Positions 6,251 to 12,990 of a stretch of DNA of 64,000 nucleotides are shown here, piece by piece; position 1 is the first letter of the stretch; each line of letters begins with the position of its first letter. The notes beneath the pieces are model-generated. The model saw only the letters and a list, made by a program, of their open reading frames with translations. It was not told where the DNA came from and searched no databases. Location of the stretch: assembly GCA_027490195.1 (NCBI GenBank), contig JAIXYN010000022.1:124001-188000 (forward strand), written 5' to 3'. Both the position numbers and the translations under genes were made by a program. The DNA comes from Verrucomicrobiaceae bacterium. Its GTDB lineage: Bacteria; Verrucomicrobiota; Verrucomicrobiia; Verrucomicrobiales; Verrucomicrobiaceae.

Positions 6251-9200
6251 TCACACCTTCGTCAACTGCCTGCGCAGACTGAGTTCCACCGCAGCGATGA
6301 TCAGGGAGAGCGTAAACAGGATGACGATGCTGTTGATCCAAAGGGTGTTGTACTTGGTGCCCAGATACATTTTCCGCGTGCCGAAAAACACATTCGGGCT
6401 GGTTTTGCGGCGGTAGTCCTCGCGCTCCATCTCCGCCTTGGTCACGAGGTCGAGCACCTTGCGGTTCACGTAGATTTCTTCGGCGCTGACGCCGTCGTTT
6501 TGCTGCAGCATGCTGTCGAGCATGGGGGGCTCAATGCGGCCGCTGAGCACGGCATCGCGGATGGAGCCGAGGCGCTTGGAGATTTCGCGCGGGTTCTCGG
6601 CATAGAGGCCGGAGACGACCGCGAGGGACTGCTTGGTGAGTTCCAATTCATGGCGCTGCCGGTCGCTCATGTCCGCCCCCGAGGGAGGCAACAGCGACTG
6701 GATGCGTTCGTCGAGGAAATCCTGGTTACGCGTGAGCGGGTTGAGCTTGGACTGTGAGATGACCATGCCTTCATAGGACCAGCGCAACGGCATGAACTGA
6801 CAGATAAAGGGCACCTTGAGCTTGCTGGCATTTTCCTCATCATTGCCAGATTTTTTGAGCCACTTGCCCACGGAATAGACGAGGTCGAGATTCTTGTTCA
6901 TTTCCTCGTACTTGATCAGCGCACCACCGAGGATGATCTGCGGAATCAGGAGCAGCGGGATGGCATTCACCGCAGTCCGGTTGTCACTGACGATGCTGGA
7001 AATGAACAGCCCCAGGCAGACGCCGGTGAGAGAGGTGAGGAACATCCACCAGAGGTGAATCAGGAACATGTCGCGGATCTCCAGCACCCAATTGCCGATG
7101 AGCAGGTAGATCACACACTGGATGAGCGCAAAGGTGGAGAGCGAGATGATCTTGCCGCTGAGGTAATAAAAAGTGCGCAGGTTGTGATTGCGCTCTCGGC
7201 TCAGGGTATGGCGGTCACGGATGATTTCATCGGCGCTGTTGGTCAGCCCGAGAAACATCGCCACGACGAGGCTCATGAAGAGATAGGTCGGGATGTGGAA
7301 AGCAGTGGCAAAGGTGTAGTGCTCCTCCTCAGAGTACTTCAGAACGCTGGAAATGATCCAGGCAAGCAAAGGAGCCTCAAGCAGGGTCGTGAGCAGATTC
7401 GTACGGTTGCGCAGCTTGCTGAGGAAGGCGCGCTTCAGCAGGGTGAAGAAAAGAATGCTCTCTTCACGAAAGGTGTGTTTCGGCGGCTTGGGCGTGCTGC
7501 GCATGCGGCTGGCACTCTGACTTTCATCCCGTTTGGGCCGGGCGATGAGGCTGGTGCTGCCTGGGGCGGACTTCTGCTTGGCCATGCTCTCCATGATGAG
7601 ATGACGCTGATAAGAATCTCGCCAGAAGTTCGGCGGGAAGCGGCGCGCAGCCACGAGGTGCCCGTCCGCGCTGCGCTCATGAATGATGTCGCCGCTGATG
7701 TCGCGCAGCGGCGTTTCGAGAACATCGAAGACAAAATCCGGCGTGAGCTTTTCGGGCGGCTGAGCCTCGGCATCTCCCGACTGGCCGGTCTCGGTATGAT
7801 AAACGCGCCAGAAGTACTCGATCATGCCCTGCGGCGTGCCGAAGTAGGCCAGTTTGCCCCCCTTGTCGAGCAGCAGGGCCTTGTCGAACATCTGTAGCAG
7901 CCGTGAACTGGGCTGATGGATGGAGGTGATGACGATCTTGTTGCGCGCCAGACTGCGGATGATTTCGAGCACATGCTCGCTGTCCTTGGAGGAGAGGCCG
8001 GAGGTCGGCTCATCGAACAGGTACACGTCCGAGATGCCGATCATGTCGAGCCCCGCATTGAGACGCTTGCGCTCGCCACCGCTGAGAAACTTTTGCTGCG
8101 GCGTGCCGGCCAGGCGGTCACGCAGGTCGGCCAGGCCGAGTTCCGCGAGCTTCGCATCCACCCGTTTGCGCCGTTCCTCAGTTTTCAAATGCGGACAGCG
8201 CACCGCCACCGAAAAGTCGAGGTTTTCCTGCACCTTCAGCAAGGGATCAAAGGCATCCTCCTGCGGAATGTAGGCGATGTAGGGCGTCAGATTGTGCAGG
8301 TTGTCATACAGCGCCATGCCGTTCATCAGGACCTCGCCGCCCTTGGGTTTGAGCTGTCCGCCGAGAATGCGCAGCAGCGTGCTTTTGCCGCAGCCGCTGG
8401 GGCCCATGACGCAGATCATCTCGCCACGGCGGGCGAGGAAGCTCACGCCGTCCTGCGCCGTGTCGCGGCCGTCGAAACGATGGCTGAGTTCGCGCACCTC
8501 GATCTGGCGCACGGTGTTGCGCTCTTCCTCGATGATGCGGTCCGCAAAATGGCAGCGCAGGTACTGCCCCTCCCCCAGGGTGATGGTGTCGCCATCATTG
8601 AGGGTGATGCGGTCGCGCACCGGAATGATGCCAATGTAGAGCGGGCGCGAGGAGCGCAGCACTTCGAGCACGCCGGTTTTCTGCGCGTAGTTGCACTCAA
8701 TGCGCAGCAGGATTTCACCATCGGTGTCTTCAGAGAGCAGGATGTCGCCTTCGTCCAGCAGTTCGGGCTTGTTGGAAACGAGGTAGGTGTTGCGGCTGCC
8801 TTCCAGCCGGAACTGCCCGCCAAACTCCTGCGCACGCACGCGCAGATCGCGCAGCGAGATTTCCACTTCGCCGTGGGCGATGAGGCTATCCTCAATGCTG
8901 GCCTCCACCACCGTGCCGCTGCTGAGCACCACGCCATTGAGCGTGGCCTTGGTGGTGCGCAGCGCCTCCACCGTGACGCCCAGGCCAAAGCTGAGTCGCA
9001 GATTGGTGCCACGCGTCCGCTGCGGGGCGATTTCCGCGCTGCCGCTCTCCGTGAGGGTCAGGTAGATCTGCGTGCCTGAGAGGGTCTTCTTCGAGTTGAA
9101 GTAGGTGATCAGGTCATTGTAGTCCAGCGTCACGTCCTCCAGCACCACACGCTCTCCCGGGTAGAGCCGCGAGAACTCTCCCGGCGGCTGCCGCCGGCTG

Positions 9201-9913
9201 CGCACCAGGATGGAAATGCTGCCCGTGTTTTTCAGCAGCACGAGGTTTTGAAACCGGAACGCCACCACGGAGCAGTCCTCCGAAAGCGAACGCAGCAGCA
9301 CATCGCAGTTCTTCGTGGCACCAATGCGCAGCGTGTCCAGCGGCTGGCCGCCCTTGGTGGAAAAGCCCTCCTCCGGCGGTTTGTCTCCGGCATTGAGCTG
9401 ATAAACGATGTCGATGGCCTGGGCGGCGATGCCCAGGTTCGTCATGAAGAGGTAGAACTCCACCATCTGCCGCTGATTCTGCTGCGCGCGCGAGATGAGA
9501 AGATAGAGCTGCACGCCCAGCAGGATTTTTTGCTCCTGTGTGAGCTTCTGGCTCAGCTCCTTGGCACGTTGCGTCAGATCCTGCGGCTCCTGCAGCGCCT
9601 CAAAGTAGAGGCGGCGCATGTCGGCGTAGATCGCCTCCGGGTAGTCATAGCGCAGGTAGCCGAGGCTGGATTCGACTTCCTCTTCCTCGATGTTTCCATC
9701 CAGCTTGCTGAAGGCGGCGAAGACTTCGATCAGCACCGGCAGCATGGTGTTGGCCGTGGCAGCCGAGGCGGCGGACACTTGCGGCTCGCCGTTCCAAAGA
9801 TGGGCCCAACGATCTGGCGACCACCATGGCAGCTCCGCCGGACCATGAACTCCATTCGCAGAGGACTGCGGGTTAGTGTTCAACATTTTGGCGAGTTTTT
9901 TGACCAAGCTCAT
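6251..9913 (-). CDS. ABCG-type ABC transporter fusion: TerB-like helical domain, beta-rich region, ATPase, ABC-2 permease
   Basis: About 1220 aa from the ATG at 9913 (MSLVKKLAKML); an upstream in-frame ATG at 9991 gives an unlikely N-terminus. Residues ~40-160 form an all-helical region with an acidic FSKLDGNIEEEE loop like TerB/DjlA domains. Residues ~190-480 look beta-rich and FHA-like (TLRIGATKNCDVLL, RITLNDGDTITLG). The ATPase has Walker A GPSGCGKST (about 500), signature LSGGERKRLNAG, Walker B VYLFDEPTSGLSS and H-loop TSIHQPSS. The C-terminus has six hydrophobic helices, the first near 840 and the last near 1207. ATPase-before-permease order matches ABCG half transporters, which export lipids or polyketides. 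Unusually large; the substrate is unknown. Confidence 0.88.
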   Translation of the reverse strand: MSLVKKLAKMLNTNPQSSANGVHGPAELPWWSPDRWAHLWNGEPQVSAASAATANTMLPVLIEVFAAFSKLDGNIEEEEVESSLGYLRYDYPEAIYADMRRLYFEALQEPQDLTQRAKELSQKLTQEQKILLGVQLYLLISRAQQNQRQMVEFYLFMTNLGIAAQAIDIVYQLNAGDKPPEEGFSTKGGQPLDTLRIGATKNCDVLLRSLSEDCSVVAFRFQNLVLLKNTGSISILVRSRRQPPGEFSRLYPGERVVLEDVTLDYNDLITYFNSKKTLSGTQIYLTLTESGSAEIAPQRTRGTNLRLSFGLGVTVEALRTTKATLNGVVLSSGTVVEASIEDSLIAHGEVEISLRDLRVRAQEFGGQFRLEGSRNTYLVSNKPELLDEGDILLSEDTDGEILLRIECNYAQKTGVLEVLRSSRPLYIGIIPVRDRITLNDGDTITLGEGQYLRCHFADRIIEEERNTVRQIEVRELSHRFDGRDTAQDGVSFLARRGEMICVMGPSGCGKSTLLRILGGQLKPKGGEVLMNGMALYDNLHNLTPYIAYIPQEDAFDPLLKVQENLDFSVAVRCPHLKTEERRKRVDAKLAELGLADLRDRLAGTPQQKFLSGGERKRLNAGLDMIGISDVYLFDEPTSGLSSKDSEHVLEIIRSLARNKIVITSIHQPSSRLLQMFDKALLLDKGGKLAYFGTPQGMIEYFWRVYHTETGQSGDAEAQPPEKLTPDFVFDVLETPLRDISGDIIHERSADGHLVAARRFPPNFWRDSYQRHLIMESMAKQKSAPGSTSLIARPKRDESQSASRMRSTPKPPKHTFREESILFFTLLKRAFLSKLRNRTNLLTTLLEAPLLAWIISSVLKYSEEEHYTFATAFHIPTYLFMSLVVAMFLGLTNSADEIIRDRHTLSRERNHNLRTFYYLSGKIISLSTFALIQCVIYLLIGNWVLEIRDMFLIHLWWMFLTSLTGVCLGLFISSIVSDNRTAVNAIPLLLIPQIILGGALIKYEEMNKNLDLVYSVGKWLKKSGNDEENASKLKVPFICQFMPLRWSYEGMVISQSKLNPLTRNQDFLDERIQSLLPPSGADMSDRQRHELELTKQSLAVVSGLYAENPREISKRLGSIRDAVLSGRIEPPMLDSMLQQNDGVSAEEIYVNRKVLDLVTKAEMEREDYRRKTSPNVFFGTRKMYLGTKYNTLWINSIVILFTLSLIIAAVELSLRRQLTKV

Positions 9914-10019
9914 GCGGTGAATTTCGTGGCAGGCCGAGGCGGCTGCGGGGCGGACGCGACTATGGAGATCGTTTGCACAAACACAACTCACGAGACGCGA
10001 ATGCCTCTTTCAAAGGCAC

Positions 10020-10077: not shown

Positions 10078-11346
10078 TCACACGCTGCGATCACGCCGAT
10101 CACCTTCGCGGCCCTGCTGATGCTGCATCGGCGGCGGTCCCTCTGGGGCACGCTCACCGCGCTGAGAAGGCGGCGCAAAGCGTGGACCGCCGTCATGCGG
10201 CGAAGGTCCCGGGCCACGGTCGCCGCCGTGCATGTCATTGGGCTGAGGTTGAGGCTTCGGCCCCTCGAAATGCTGAGGACCCATGCCATGGTGCTCGCCG
10301 CCGTGGTGATTTCCGAACGGCTGGGGGCCAGGGCCACGGCGCTGCTCAAAGCGGGGCGCAGGGCCGCGAGGGCCGCCGAATCTCGAACCTCCACGCGAAC
10401 TGCCGAACTGCTGCGGCTGCTGCCGTCCGCCAAAGCGATGCCCCATCCTGCCCTCTGGGCTGCGGCCCCGGTGCGCCTGCCCATCCTGCGGGCCGCCCTG
10501 CGGTGAGCGGAAACCTTCGCCGCCACGCGGTGCGCCAAAAGCTCCGCGCTGGGCAAAAGACTGCGGACCACGACCTTCCAAACGAGGCCGGAAACCGCCC
10601 TGCTCATTGCCACGCGGCCCTGGAGGTTGGCGGAAATGATCCTGACGGCCTGCATGCTCCTGCCCCCGGTGGCCTTCATGCGGTGGGTTCATCGCACCAC
10701 GATTGCCCTGCGGCTCTACGCGTTGTGGCTCTGCACGTTGCGGCTCTCCGCGCTGTGGCTCTCCGCGCTGTGGCTCTCCGCGTTGTGATTCTCCACGTTG
10801 CGGCTCTCTGCGTTGCGGCTCTCCACGTTGCGGCTCTCTGCGTTGCGGCTCTCCGCGTTGTGGCTCTCCGCGTTGTGGTTCTCCACGTTGTGGTTCTCCA
10901 CGTTGTGGTTCTCCACGTTGTGGTTCTCCACGTTGTGGTTCTCCACGTTGTGGCTCTGCGCGTTGTGGTTCTCCACGTTGTGGCTCGCCACCTTGCAGGC
11001 CATCCATGGGCGGACGGCGAAAGCCATCGCGGCCATGTTCAGGGCCGCGATTCTGCGGCGGATTCTCCGGTCCGCGCCGCCCATCGCGCTGCGGCTGCGC
11101 GCCATCGCGCGGACCTGCCATGTCCGGGCGGCGCTGAGGCTCAGGACGGGATGCATTGCCATCCCGCTGCTCGCCGGGGCGCGGCTGATTCTGCGGCGCA
11201 GGGGCGGGAGGAAGTGGGTCCTTCTGAGGGGCCGCCACCGGTGGCGGAGGCTGGTCTGCGGGCTTGGCATCCTGAGCTTGCAACGGCGCGACGCTGAGAG
11301 CGAGCGCACCACAAAGCCAGGAGAGTCGGTTGGTTTTGGATTTCAT
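10078..11346 (-). CDS. Secreted Pro/Gln/Arg/Gly-rich protein with GEPQR pentapeptide array
   Basis: 422 aa from the ATG at 11346; this start gives a clear signal peptide (MKSKTNRLSWLCGALALSVA, cleavage near LQAQ). The mature protein is low-complexity throughout. There is a Pro-rich segment, then a run of 18 consecutive five-residue units of consensus GEPQR (first position also A, R or V), and then a His/Gly/Arg/Gln-rich tail (GSRFGGPRGP, HHGGEHHGMG). No enzymatic domain is present. The composition suggests a strongly basic, disordered exported protein, perhaps binding anionic polymers at the cell surface; that is inference. A strong terminator follows at 10020-10048. Confidence 0.7.
   Translation of the reverse strand: MKSKTNRLSWLCGALALSVAPLQAQDAKPADQPPPPVAAPQKDPLPPAPAPQNQPRPGEQRDGNASRPEPQRRPDMAGPRDGAQPQRDGRRGPENPPQNRGPEHGRDGFRRPPMDGLQGGEPQRGEPQRAEPQRGEPQRGEPQRGEPQRGEPQRGEPQRGEPQRGEPQRREPQRGEPQRREPQRGESQRGEPQRGEPQRGEPQRAEPQRVEPQGNRGAMNPPHEGHRGQEHAGRQDHFRQPPGPRGNEQGGFRPRLEGRGPQSFAQRGAFGAPRGGEGFRSPQGGPQDGQAHRGRSPEGRMGHRFGGRQQPQQFGSSRGGSRFGGPRGPAPRFEQRRGPGPQPFGNHHGGEHHGMGPQHFEGPKPQPQPNDMHGGDRGPGPSPHDGGPRFAPPSQRGERAPEGPPPMQHQQGREGDRRDRSV
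10708..10989. repeat. 15-bp tandem repeat array (18 full units plus a partial)
   Basis: From 10720 the plus strand repeats a 15-bp unit of the form (a/g)cgttgtgg(c/t)tctcc without interruption to 10989, preceded by a 12-bp partial unit. On the minus strand each unit encodes GEPQR or a one-residue variant (AEPQR, REPQR, GESQR, VEPQ). The central units around 10870-10944 are nearly identical at DNA level, which points to recent slippage expansion. Confidence 0.92.
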
Positions 11347-11634
11347 GAGAGAGCTGTTTTGGTTGACTGCGGAAGCATAAACTCCCGTCAGTGGCAAGAG
11401 TTTCACACGCCTGCACCTCTCCGGTGAATCCGGGTTAAAAAACATCAGCAACGGCGCTGCACCAGGACCGCCAGCCCCCCCCCTCCAAATACCCCTTTCG
11501 CAGCGTTGAAATTGGTTGATTCTGCCTGCCAGCCGAGCCCTATTCTCCTTTTTGAGAATCTTGAATTGACTCAATCCTGCGAAACGTTTAGCTTATTTAA
11601 CAATCAACCATGCCTCTCACTTCACGAAATTAAT

Positions 11635-12990
11635 ATGGCTAAACTAGTAATCATAGACGACGAAGCCGCCATTCTCGAACTCATGACCAAGCTTTGCAAA
11701 GCTGCGGGTCACCAAGTTTTCGGCTGTACCACCGGCATTGACGGCATTGCGGCCATCCGTTCCAACCAGCCCGACCTCGTCATTGTGGACCTGCGCATCG
11801 GCGATGTGAATGGCCTAGATCTCGTCAGCATGTGCAAGGATCAGTTCCCCAATACGGCTGTCATCATGGTCACGGGCCATGGCAGCGTGGAAACTGCCGT
11901 GGAAGCCATGCGCCTCGGGGCCTTCGACTACCTTACCAAGCCCTTCGATCTGGGCGATCTGATCAAGACGGTGAATCAGGCCCTGCAGCGCAACGGCATC
12001 GCGGCCGCCACGCCCGCCAGCATTCCCAGCACCACGCTGCGCTCCGCCTCATCTTCGAAACTCATCGGTCACAGCGATGCGATTCAGCGCATTTTTGACA
12101 TCGTGCGCCGCGTGGCCAACAACGACAGCCCTGTCCTCCTTGAAGGCGAATTCGGCGTGGGCAAGCACATGGTCGCCCGCGCCCTGCATGAGGCCAGCCG
12201 CCGCAGCAACTCCCCTTATAAGGAGCTTCAGTGCAGCGCCATGCCGGAAGACGCGCTCGAAACCGAGCTCTTCAGCCAGACCGCCATCTTCAATCGCGCC
12301 TCCGGTGGCACCATCCATCTGGCAGAGGTCAATCAGCTCCCGGCCCGCATTCAGGCCCAGCTCAACACCTTTCTCGATGAAGCGCAGTCCAAGAAAGGCT
12401 GGGGCAACGGTTCCAGTGGCGTGGACTTCCGCCTCGTGGTCTCCAGCACGACCTCTCTCGAAGATGCCGTGAAGGCGGGCAAATTCCGCGAAGACTTGTA
12501 CTACAAGCTCTCTGTGGTGCCCCTCAAGATCCCGCCGCTGCGTGAGCGCCGCGTGGACGTGCGCCCGCTGGTCGAGCATTTCCTCAAAGACCTCGCCGAC
12601 CGCACCGACGCCAAGCCCAAGACCATCGACACCGGGGCCATCGAATTCCTGGAGAAGTACAATTGGCCCGGCAACGTCAGCGAGCTGCGCAATGCCATCG
12701 AGCGCGCCTGCGCCTTTGCGGAAAACGACCGCGTCCGCCCCTCCGACCTGCCGGCCAAAGTCACCCAGCAGATCGAGATTCCCACCCCTTCCACCACCGA
12801 GGGCATCACCAAGCTCCCCATCGGCTCCACGCTCGATGACTTCATCAAGGGCCAGGAGCGCGCCTTCATTCAGGAAACCCTCAAGTACAACAGTGGCTCC
12901 CGCGAAAAGACCGCCAGCATGCTCGGCGTCTCCATCGCCACCCTCTACCGCAAGATGGGCCTCAACGTCGAGCGCAAGACCACGTCATAG
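11635..12990 (+). CDS. NtrC-family response regulator lacking the sigma-54 contact motif
   Basis: 451 aa from the ATG at 11635. An N-terminal receiver domain (residues 3-118) has the acidic pair DDE, phospho-acceptor Asp52 (IVDLR), the Thr in MVTGHG and the Lys in YLTKPFD. The central AAA+ domain keeps Walker A GEFGVGKHM (about 170), the arginine-finger region (FREDLYYKLSVVPLKIPPLRER) and the NWPGNVSELRN sensor segment. The GAFTGA loop expected after ELF is absent (ELFSQTAIFNRASGG), and Walker B reads GTIHLAE instead of GTLFLDE. A Fis-type helix-turn-helix (KTASMLGVSIATLYRKMGL) ends the protein. It probably binds DNA but cannot engage sigma-54 in the normal way. No cognate kinase is adjacent; a terminator follows. 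Confidence 0.88.
   Translation: MAKLVIIDDEAAILELMTKLCKAAGHQVFGCTTGIDGIAAIRSNQPDLVIVDLRIGDVNGLDLVSMCKDQFPNTAVIMVTGHGSVETAVEAMRLGAFDYLTKPFDLGDLIKTVNQALQRNGIAAATPASIPSTTLRSASSSKLIGHSDAIQRIFDIVRRVANNDSPVLLEGEFGVGKHMVARALHEASRRSNSPYKELQCSAMPEDALETELFSQTAIFNRASGGTIHLAEVNQLPARIQAQLNTFLDEAQSKKGWGNGSSGVDFRLVVSSTTSLEDAVKAGKFREDLYYKLSVVPLKIPPLRERRVDVRPLVEHFLKDLADRTDAKPKTIDTGAIEFLEKYNWPGNVSELRNAIERACAFAENDRVRPSDLPAKVTQQIEIPTPSTTEGITKLPIGSTLDDFIKGQERAFIQETLKYNSGSREKTASMLGVSIATLYRKMGLNVERKTTS

What the first reader, a model, noticed from the sequence alone, without database searches (positions are those of the whole stretch)
11635..12990. NtrC-like regulator without the GAFTGA loop and with altered Walker B
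After ELF the sequence jumps to SQTAIFNRASGGTIHLAE, so the sigma-54 contact loop is missing and the Walker B Asp is Ala. Walker A, receiver Asp52 and the Fis-type HTH remain. This suggests a sigma-54-independent regulator evolved from an activator, as in a few known cases (NtrC of Rhodobacter, TyrR, HupR).
Basis: partly seen in the sequence, partly recalled or inferred. Interest (0 to 1): 0.6.

Follow-up and report, generated by a model that had tools for sequence, protein, structure and literature searches.

The report
Sigma-54 activator that abandoned sigma-54
This gene switch descends from a motor-type activator that works only with the special sigma-54 form of RNA polymerase; in one bacterial order it lost the motor and the sigma-54 contact but seems to have kept its DNA address, here found beside an ordinary promoter, so it offers a natural before-and-after comparison of how a regulator changes polymerase partner.

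Summary
The 451-aa response regulator (11635-12990 +) lacks the sigma-54 contact loop GAFTGA and has Walker B Asp changed to Ala; sensor I Asn, second Arg finger and sensor II Arg are also replaced. 92 of 92 distinct orthologues lack GAFTGA; 51 of 51 relatives outside the clade keep it. The degenerate proteins form one clade inside a phylum-wide family of normal sigma-54 activators. Receiver, Walker A and HTH are conserved under purifying selection.

New here: a 20-bp palindrome (window 11541-11560) precedes 50 of 71 degenerate orthologues upstream of -75, in 41 of these 4-7 bp before a sigma-70-like -35. Outside the training set, the palindrome accompanies sigma-54 promoters of 11 of 23 pilin genes beside GAFTGA-bearing relatives, and precedes an ATPase-like gene in 22 of 37 and 6 of 20 loci of two families, against 0 of 12 in a family without a detected regulator. 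Best reading: a PilR-like activator became, once, a sigma-54-independent regulator that kept its operator. GAFTGA-less NtrC-like regulators are known, so this is a new variant. Binding and sign are untested.

The parts
11635..12990 (+). GAFTGA-less, probably ATPase-dead NtrC-type response regulator (451 aa)
11641..11988 (+). receiver domain, phosphorylation site D52 at 11788-11790; D8, D9, T80, K102 conserved
12145..12165 (+). Walker A GEFGVGK (Lys in 92 of 93 rows)
12265..12288 (+). junction ELF-SQTAI where loop 1 / GAFTGA is missing
12322..12327 (+). Walker B: Asp replaced by Ala230, Glu231 kept
12484..12507 (+). Arg-finger segment FREDLYYK: first Arg kept, second is Lys
12664..12687 (+). 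sensor II segment WPGNVSEL: Arg replaced by Ser
12856..12963 (+). Fis-type HTH with nearly invariant recognition helix SIATLYRKM
11541..11560 (.). palindromic putative operator TATTCTCCTTTTTGAGAATC
   Evidence: score 17.2; next best place in the 64-kb window 11.4
11566..11571 (+). putative -35 TTGACT, 5 bp after the palindrome
   Evidence: consensus match only
11589..11594 (+). putative -10 TAGCTT, 17-bp spacer
   Evidence: consensus match only

Best explanation
An orphan response regulator of Verrucomicrobiales, derived once from a PilR-like sigma-54 activator. Shown by sequence: its AAA+ domain lost the sigma-54-contact loop and most hydrolysis and sensing residues but kept Walker A; receiver and HTH are intact and conserved; in most members a palindrome lies upstream of its own gene, usually 4-7 bp before a sigma-70-type -35, and in part of the genomes also upstream of an ATPase-like gene; the same palindrome is the apparent enhancer of sigma-54 pilin promoters beside GAFTGA-bearing relatives. 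Inferred: an unknown kinase phosphorylates D52; the AAA+ domain serves, perhaps with bound but unhydrolysed ATP, as an oligomerisation scaffold; the HTH dimer binds the palindrome centred near -50 and regulates the housekeeping polymerase directly, more likely as an activator (weak -10, site not over -35, fixed phasing) than as a repressor. The target set looks small.
For: GAFTGA 0 of 92 against 51 of 51; over 93 rows (window counted twice) Walker B Asp kept in 3, sensor I Asn in 3, sensor II Arg in 0, against 51, 48 and 51 of 51. One clade 100/100; with canonical L173/L174 100/100; inside canonical phylum relatives 99/88; loop and Walker B columns left out. Palindrome: EM on 71 upstreams; 50 of 71 score >=12 upstream of -75; in 41 of the 50 TTG followed by A, C or G starts 4-7 bp later and a TA follows at a 15-19-bp spacer, shuffles 6% and 1.3%. 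Score >=16: 75 hits in 1.2 Mb of overlapping orthologue loci, training promoters included, all in the regulator promoter, 0 in the reversed control. Out of sample: 11 of 23 pilin genes near canonical relatives have palindrome and sigma-54 promoter, shuffles 0; 17 of 35 canonical phylum relatives have the palindrome within 300 bp of their own start, shuffles 1%, and 0 of 16 non-phylum relatives; ATPase-gene upstreams 22 of 37 (f1), 6 of 20 (f3), 0 of 12 (f2) at or above the 99th percentile of shuffles. dN/dS.
Against: The genome has rpoN and three activators with GSFTGA, so absence of sigma-54 is no argument. Sigma-54-like sites are rare upstream of the gene in degenerate (0 of 118) but also in canonical relatives (1 of 35 phylum, 0 of 16 others), so the own-gene promoter does not itself show a switch. 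21 of 71 upstreams lack a palindrome >=12 upstream of -75, and in 9 of the 61 first counted above threshold the best hit is the -10 region. Own-genome TTCTC-N6-GAGAA sites barely exceed the control (10 against 8). 24 pilin-like loci of the own genome: best palindrome 14.7, AT-rich; sigma-54-like sites scoring 10 in 6 of the 24 (some overlapping) 3-kb loci, not placed relative to the genes. ATPase-gene palindrome missing in 15 of 37 and 14 of 20 loci. Binding of this protein to the palindrome is inferred. Many rows are close relatives.
Confidence: 0.76

Rival explanations
1. Dedicated (auto)repressor: same sigma-54-independent origin and operator, but binding next to -35 blocks the housekeeping polymerase.
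For: The autoregulatory site is the most regular one; a position near -35 does not decide the sign; GAFTGA-less Caulobacter NtrC represses some sigma-70 promoters (PMC10274813 passages).
Against: Palindrome ends 4-7 bp before -35 rather than over it, with fixed phasing and a poor -10, more usual for activation (recalled rule of thumb).
Confidence: 0.35
2. The palindrome belongs to another regulator; the GAFTGA-less protein works elsewhere.
For: No binding experiment; 21 of 71 orthologue promoters lack a clear palindrome upstream of -75.
Against: It recurs at the regulator's own gene in degenerate and canonical lineages, near sigma-54 pilin promoters beside canonical orthologues, and is absent upstream of ATPase homologues in 12 of 12 genomes of family f2, a family with no genome among the 119 that matched the regulator. 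The HTH is nearly invariant.
Confidence: 0.12
3. Still a sigma-54 regulator in hetero-oligomers with a canonical activator, or an inhibitor of one.
For: Three GSFTGA activators in the genome; Walker A and first Arg finger kept.
Against: GAFTGA and most ATPase residues gone; no strong sigma-54-like site upstream of the gene in 118 loci, although canonical relatives lack it there too.
Confidence: 0.07
4. Decaying pseudogene or assembly error.
For: No match in 70 of 189 genomes of the order at E <= 1e-90; two members have an in-frame stop in the match; L123 is strongly eroded.
Against: 92 distinct orthologues with the same loss, dN/dS well under 1.
Confidence: 0.01

Closest known systems
PilR-like canonical sigma-54 response regulators of the same phylum (35 loci among L062-L092 and L173-L192)
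   Same: one clade with the degenerate proteins (99/88), same receiver-AAA-HTH order, closely similar recognition helix, same palindrome
   Different: they keep GAFTGA, Walker B Asp and sensor II Arg; 16 of the 51 canonical loci have pilin-like genes within 3 kb downstream. The name PilR-like is mine, from the neighbours
NtrC of Rhodobacter capsulatus and of Caulobacter (PMC10274813, passages read)
   Same: loop with GAFTGA deleted; reported or inferred to act at sigma-70 promoters; receiver Asp used
   Different: Caulobacter Walker A Lys and Walker B Asp are reported as needed; here Walker B Asp is mostly lost; NtrC model score 316.6 against cut-off 558.6
NtrX of Brucella (PDB 5m7n/5m7o/5m7p)
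   Same: best structural match by Foldseek, shortened loop in place of GAFTGA (alignment)
   Different: NtrX keeps Walker B DE in that alignment; NtrX model score 303.3 against cut-off 600
HupR, TyrR, DhaR, VpsR (PMC3162934, passages read)
   Same: GAFTGA defective; HupR, TyrR and DhaR reported sigma-70 dependent
   Different: other phyla (recalled); kinship to this family not tested by tree here; TyrR model 191.8 of 576 bits

Membership tests
sigma-54-dependent enhancer-binding proteins (NtrC family) | AAA+ Sigma54_activat domain | tested here: met
   PF00158 E 2.4e-36
sigma-54-dependent enhancer-binding proteins (NtrC family) | GAFTGA loop | tested here: not met
   absent; 0 of 92 distinct orthologues
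sigma-54-dependent enhancer-binding proteins (NtrC family) | ATPase residues: Walker B Asp, sensor I Asn, second Arg finger, sensor II Arg | tested here: not met
   Ala, Thr, Lys, Ser in the window; (motif roles recalled)
sigma-54-dependent enhancer-binding proteins (NtrC family) | targets with -24/-12 promoters | tested here: inconclusive
   0 of 118 own upstreams score >=10, but canonical relatives only 1 of 35; full target set unknown
GAFTGA-less, sigma-54-independent NtrC-like regulators | loss of the sigma-54 loop conserved among orthologues | tested here: met
GAFTGA-less, sigma-54-independent NtrC-like regulators | control of sigma-70-type promoters | tested here: inconclusive
   palindrome phased to a -35/-10-like pair in 41 of 50, shuffles 1.3%; no experiment
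NtrC / NtrX orthologues | curated model cut-off | tested here: not met
   316.6 of 558.6 and 303.3 of 600 bits
phylum-wide PilR-like clade | tree placement with canonical phylum relatives | tested here: met
   99/88
phylum-wide PilR-like clade | palindrome at type IV pilin-like genes | tested here: not met
   24 pilin-like loci of the own genome, no palindrome >=15; other degenerate genomes and regulation itself not tested

The most novel reading that the evidence does not exclude
A regulator changed sigma-factor dependence while keeping its operator: the ancestor was bifunctional, with the palindrome at its own sigma-70-type promoter as well as at sigma-54 pilin promoters, so loss of GAFTGA only removed the sigma-54 half, and the freed protein gained a new target, an uncharacterised ATPase-like gene. 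Support for the ancestral sigma-70 role is modest: of 17 GAFTGA-bearing relatives with the palindrome at their own gene, 3 have a TTG 5-6 bp after it (L178 and the near-identical L079 and L083) and 2 have one at its edge (L179, L187).
Probability: 0.42. Interest if true: 0.72.

Novelty: new variant of a known kind. Interest (0 to 1): 0.6.

Why it matters
GAFTGA-less NtrC-like regulators are known case by case; how an obligate sigma-54 activator turns into a sigma-54-independent one is, to my knowledge, little understood. Here both states coexist in one phylum with a shared operator, a single loss placed on the tree, and a sister (L173/L174) that still has GAFTGA. That makes the change directly testable: one DNA site, two protein states, two promoter classes. 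Pfam labels the domain a sigma-54 interaction domain, so automatic naming may mislead; PMC3162934 reports such misnaming for other GAFTGA-less proteins.

Tried and rejected
Absence of rpoN as proof of sigma-54 independence: useless, rpoN was found in 182 of 189 genomes of the order. Lack of a sigma-54 site at the own gene as proof: useless too, canonical relatives lack it as well (only 1 of 35 has one). Neighbour genes as function clue: an exopolysaccharide polymerase / WecA-type / glycosyltransferase run lies upstream in up to 16 of 50 loci and an ECF sigma factor is divergent in 9 of 50; genes that look like rnd, rho and coaE lie downstream in 14-16 loci of both kinds (named by eye). I treat the gene as an orphan and these as weak leads. 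Pilin targets in the own genome: 24 PF07963 loci, none convincing. Exact-pattern site search in the own genome: 10 sites against 8 in the control; I looked at the 9 sites other than the window's own, most inside genes. Only the ATPase-gene site (C28:75082) held up across relatives. Wider genus scan: 34 of 39 genomes match, by my sum 79 strand hits against 37 in the control; by coordinates the regulator and ATPase places recur in several genomes, and I did not inspect the new loci L307-L335. The ATPase-like gene has no family above cut-off and no solved relative, so its role is unknown. AlphaFold model: mean pLDDT 78, pTM 0.52, so domain arrangement is not interpreted. Papers: no held paper has the words GAFTGA and Verrucomicrobia, but PMC12316311 has GAFTGA and Verrucomicrobiota; the passages seen show that it kept only GAFTGA-bearing proteins, so it would not have seen this family. 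One paper has Verrucomicrobia, sigma54 and 'enhancer binding protein', titled on methane monooxygenase (listing only); none has Prosthecobacter, 'response regulator' and 'type IV pili'.

Rows dropped: near-identical upstreams (91 to 71); one f1 locus without upstream sequence (L250, 37 of 38 kept); in the careful tree 22 of 80 rows, long branches and redundant ones. For one search I fetched only part of the 133 genomes with the ATPase-like gene (38 f1, 20 f3, 12 f2).

Full report
What is there. The ORF at 11635-12990 (+) encodes 451 aa: receiver, AAA+ domain of the sigma-54-activator type, lid and Fis-type HTH. Between ELF and GGT a short stretch replaces the part where canonical proteins carry GAFTGA, and Walker B reads IHLAEV. 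Three more residues that canonical relatives hold are changed: sensor I Asn to Thr, the second Arg finger to Lys, sensor II Arg to Ser (motif roles are recalled knowledge).

Is it real and conserved? A scan of named genome contigs returned 80 loci (the best 80 of 565 stretches encoding relatives, itself a capped list): 49 (L013-L061, 45-98% identity) share the loss and 31 (L062-L092) have GAFTGA. In whole genomes of the same order 119 of 189 have a match at E <= 1e-90, one each; no genome of family f2 is among these 119. Pooling the fetched loci, 92 distinct degenerate sequences from 119 loci, the window's sequence among them, have GAFTGA in 0 of 92, against 51 of 51 canonical sequences. Over 93 rows (the window counted twice) the Walker B Asp position reads Ala 47, Glu 36, Thr 3, Asp 3, Gly 2, Ser 1, Cys 1; the next Glu is in 93 of 93; the sensor I position keeps Asn in 3; sensor II is never Arg; the second Arg finger is Lys in 79 and Arg in 14; the first Arg finger is in 93 of 93; Walker A Lys in 92; receiver D52 in 93. 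Whole-gene dN/dS of the window against five relatives is 0.044-0.131, the fifth with dS above 2; a sixth pair was saturated. An assembly error or pseudogene is excluded for the window copy. Eroded copies exist elsewhere: L123, and two matches with an in-frame stop.

Where it comes from. In the phylum outside this order, 20 of 20 fetched best matches have GAFTGA (L173-L192). A careful tree of 58 of 80 rows, without the loop and Walker B columns, puts the 22 degenerate rows in one clade (100/100), with canonical L173/L174 as sister (100/100), and both within the canonical relatives of the phylum (99/88). A quick tree of all 80 rows agreed. One loss, before the split of the families examined, is the simplest history. 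The gap is 12 residues in the window's close relatives and 7-11 in most others.

The DNA site. Motif search by EM on 71 non-redundant 250-bp upstream stretches found a 20-bp palindrome, naTTcTCAaATtTGAgAAtn. 61 of 71 upstreams score above the 99th percentile of shuffles, but in 9 of these the best hit lies over the -10 region instead; a hit >=12 starting more than 75 bp upstream is present in 50 of 71. In 41 of these 50, TTG followed by A, C or G starts 4-7 bp after the palindrome and a TA follows at a 15-19-bp spacer; shuffles give 6% and 1.3%. In the window this is TTGACT-N17-TAGCTT. In 1.2 Mb of orthologue loci (overlapping sets, training promoters included) all 75 hits >=16 lie within 300 bp upstream of the regulator, none elsewhere and none in the reversed control; at >=11, 122 of 129 do, with 3 in the control.

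Out-of-sample tests. The matrix was trained on degenerate promoters only. Around the 51 GAFTGA-bearing loci I found 23 type IV pilin-like genes within 3 kb downstream, in 16 loci: 11 have the palindrome >=12, 19 a sigma-54 promoter >=10, 11 both; shuffles gave 0.017, 0.023 and 0 per gene. In 9 of the 11 the palindrome centre is 50-112 bp upstream of the -24 element, a usual enhancer distance (recalled); in the other two 244 and 269 bp. In L176 the neighbours are T2SSE (pilB-type), T2SSF (pilC-type) and an N_methyl pilin. 17 of 35 canonical phylum relatives have the palindrome >=12 within 300 bp of their own start (shuffles 1%), against 0 of 16 non-phylum relatives. Second, the palindrome precedes a gene of about 750-800 aa with a GYGK motif and only a sub-threshold AAA_16 match. 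For homologues of that gene, the best score upstream reaches the 99th percentile in 22 of 37 loci of the window's family, 6 of 20 of family f3 (19 of these 20 genomes matched the regulator) and 0 of 12 of family f2, whose genomes did not. These loci are not independent, were taken best-first for f1, and the f2 homologues are distant.

Results against, or neutral. Sigma-54-like sites are absent upstream of the gene in 118 of 118 degenerate loci, but also in 34 of 35 canonical phylum relatives, so the own-gene promoter shows no switch by itself; the contrast lies in the protein and in the pilin targets. The own genome has rpoN and three activators with GSFTGA. Its 24 pilin-like loci carry no convincing palindrome. 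In the genus scan palindrome-pattern hits are only about twice the control.

How it probably works. Shown: sequence losses, conservation, the palindrome, promoter geometry by consensus. Inferred: phosphorylation of D52 by an unknown kinase changes the oligomer; the AAA+ domain, with Walker A kept, is a scaffold that may bind ATP without using it; the HTH dimer binds the palindrome around -50 and touches the housekeeping polymerase. Fixed phasing, no overlap with -35 and a poor -10 lean towards activation, but repression is a serious rival. A few GAFTGA-bearing relatives already have a TTG close after the palindrome at their own gene (L178, L079, L083 at 5-6 bp; L179, L187 at its edge; 5 of 17), which hints that a sigma-70 role preceded the loss.

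Compared with what is known. A survey listed TyrR, DhaR and HupR as GAFTGA-defective and sigma-70 dependent and judged VpsR and YplP probably not sigma-54 dependent (PMC3162934, passages read). Caulobacter and Rhodobacter NtrC lack the motif and are reported to act at sigma-70 promoters; in Caulobacter Walker A and B residues are still needed (PMC10274813, passages read). NtrX of Brucella is the best structural match. The present family meets neither the NtrC nor the NtrX cut-off and has mostly lost the Walker B Asp as well. It works like them but belongs to a PilR-like clade (my name, from its neighbours). I rate it a new variant of a known kind.

Limits. No experiment; promoters by consensus only; G genomes unnamed; many rows closely related; target set incomplete.

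Noticed in passing
L023, L026, L027, L028, L029, L030, L031, L032, L036, L047, L050, L120: about 125 to 40 bp upstream of the regulator: A long inverted repeat embraces the -35 region; its letters differ between species yet stay paired, with an inner stem. Could be a terminator of the upstream gene or a promoter-embracing hairpin; pairing judged from single-sequence folds by eye, no covariation test run.
   Followed up: partly
L234:4197-6578 (+): ATPase-like gene of 794 aa; 133 of 189 genomes of the order have a match; no family above cut-off; shares the regulator's palindrome in part of the loci.
   Followed up: partly
L173 and L174, about 0.6 kb downstream of the GAFTGA-bearing sister gene: rpoN lies close downstream of the sister regulator (Pfam confirmed for L173; L174 by similar sequence).
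   Followed up: partly
L038, L043, L048, L051, L052, L054, L055, L058, L060 upstream of the regulator: Divergent gene that looks like an ECF-type sigma factor next to the regulator, followed by a conserved gene that might be its anti-sigma factor (by eye).
   Followed up: no
window 10078-11574 (-): Long low-complexity ORF with many GEPQR-type tandem repeats; its mechanical start overlaps the regulator's promoter; similar ORF in the five closest loci.
   Followed up: no
L123 (G116): Strongly eroded copy of the regulator with almost the whole loop region gone, in a genome of the same genus code.
   Followed up: no
window 6251-9991 (-): Large ABC-transporter-like protein, 96-98% identical in the five closest loci beside the regulator (naming by eye).
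   Followed up: no
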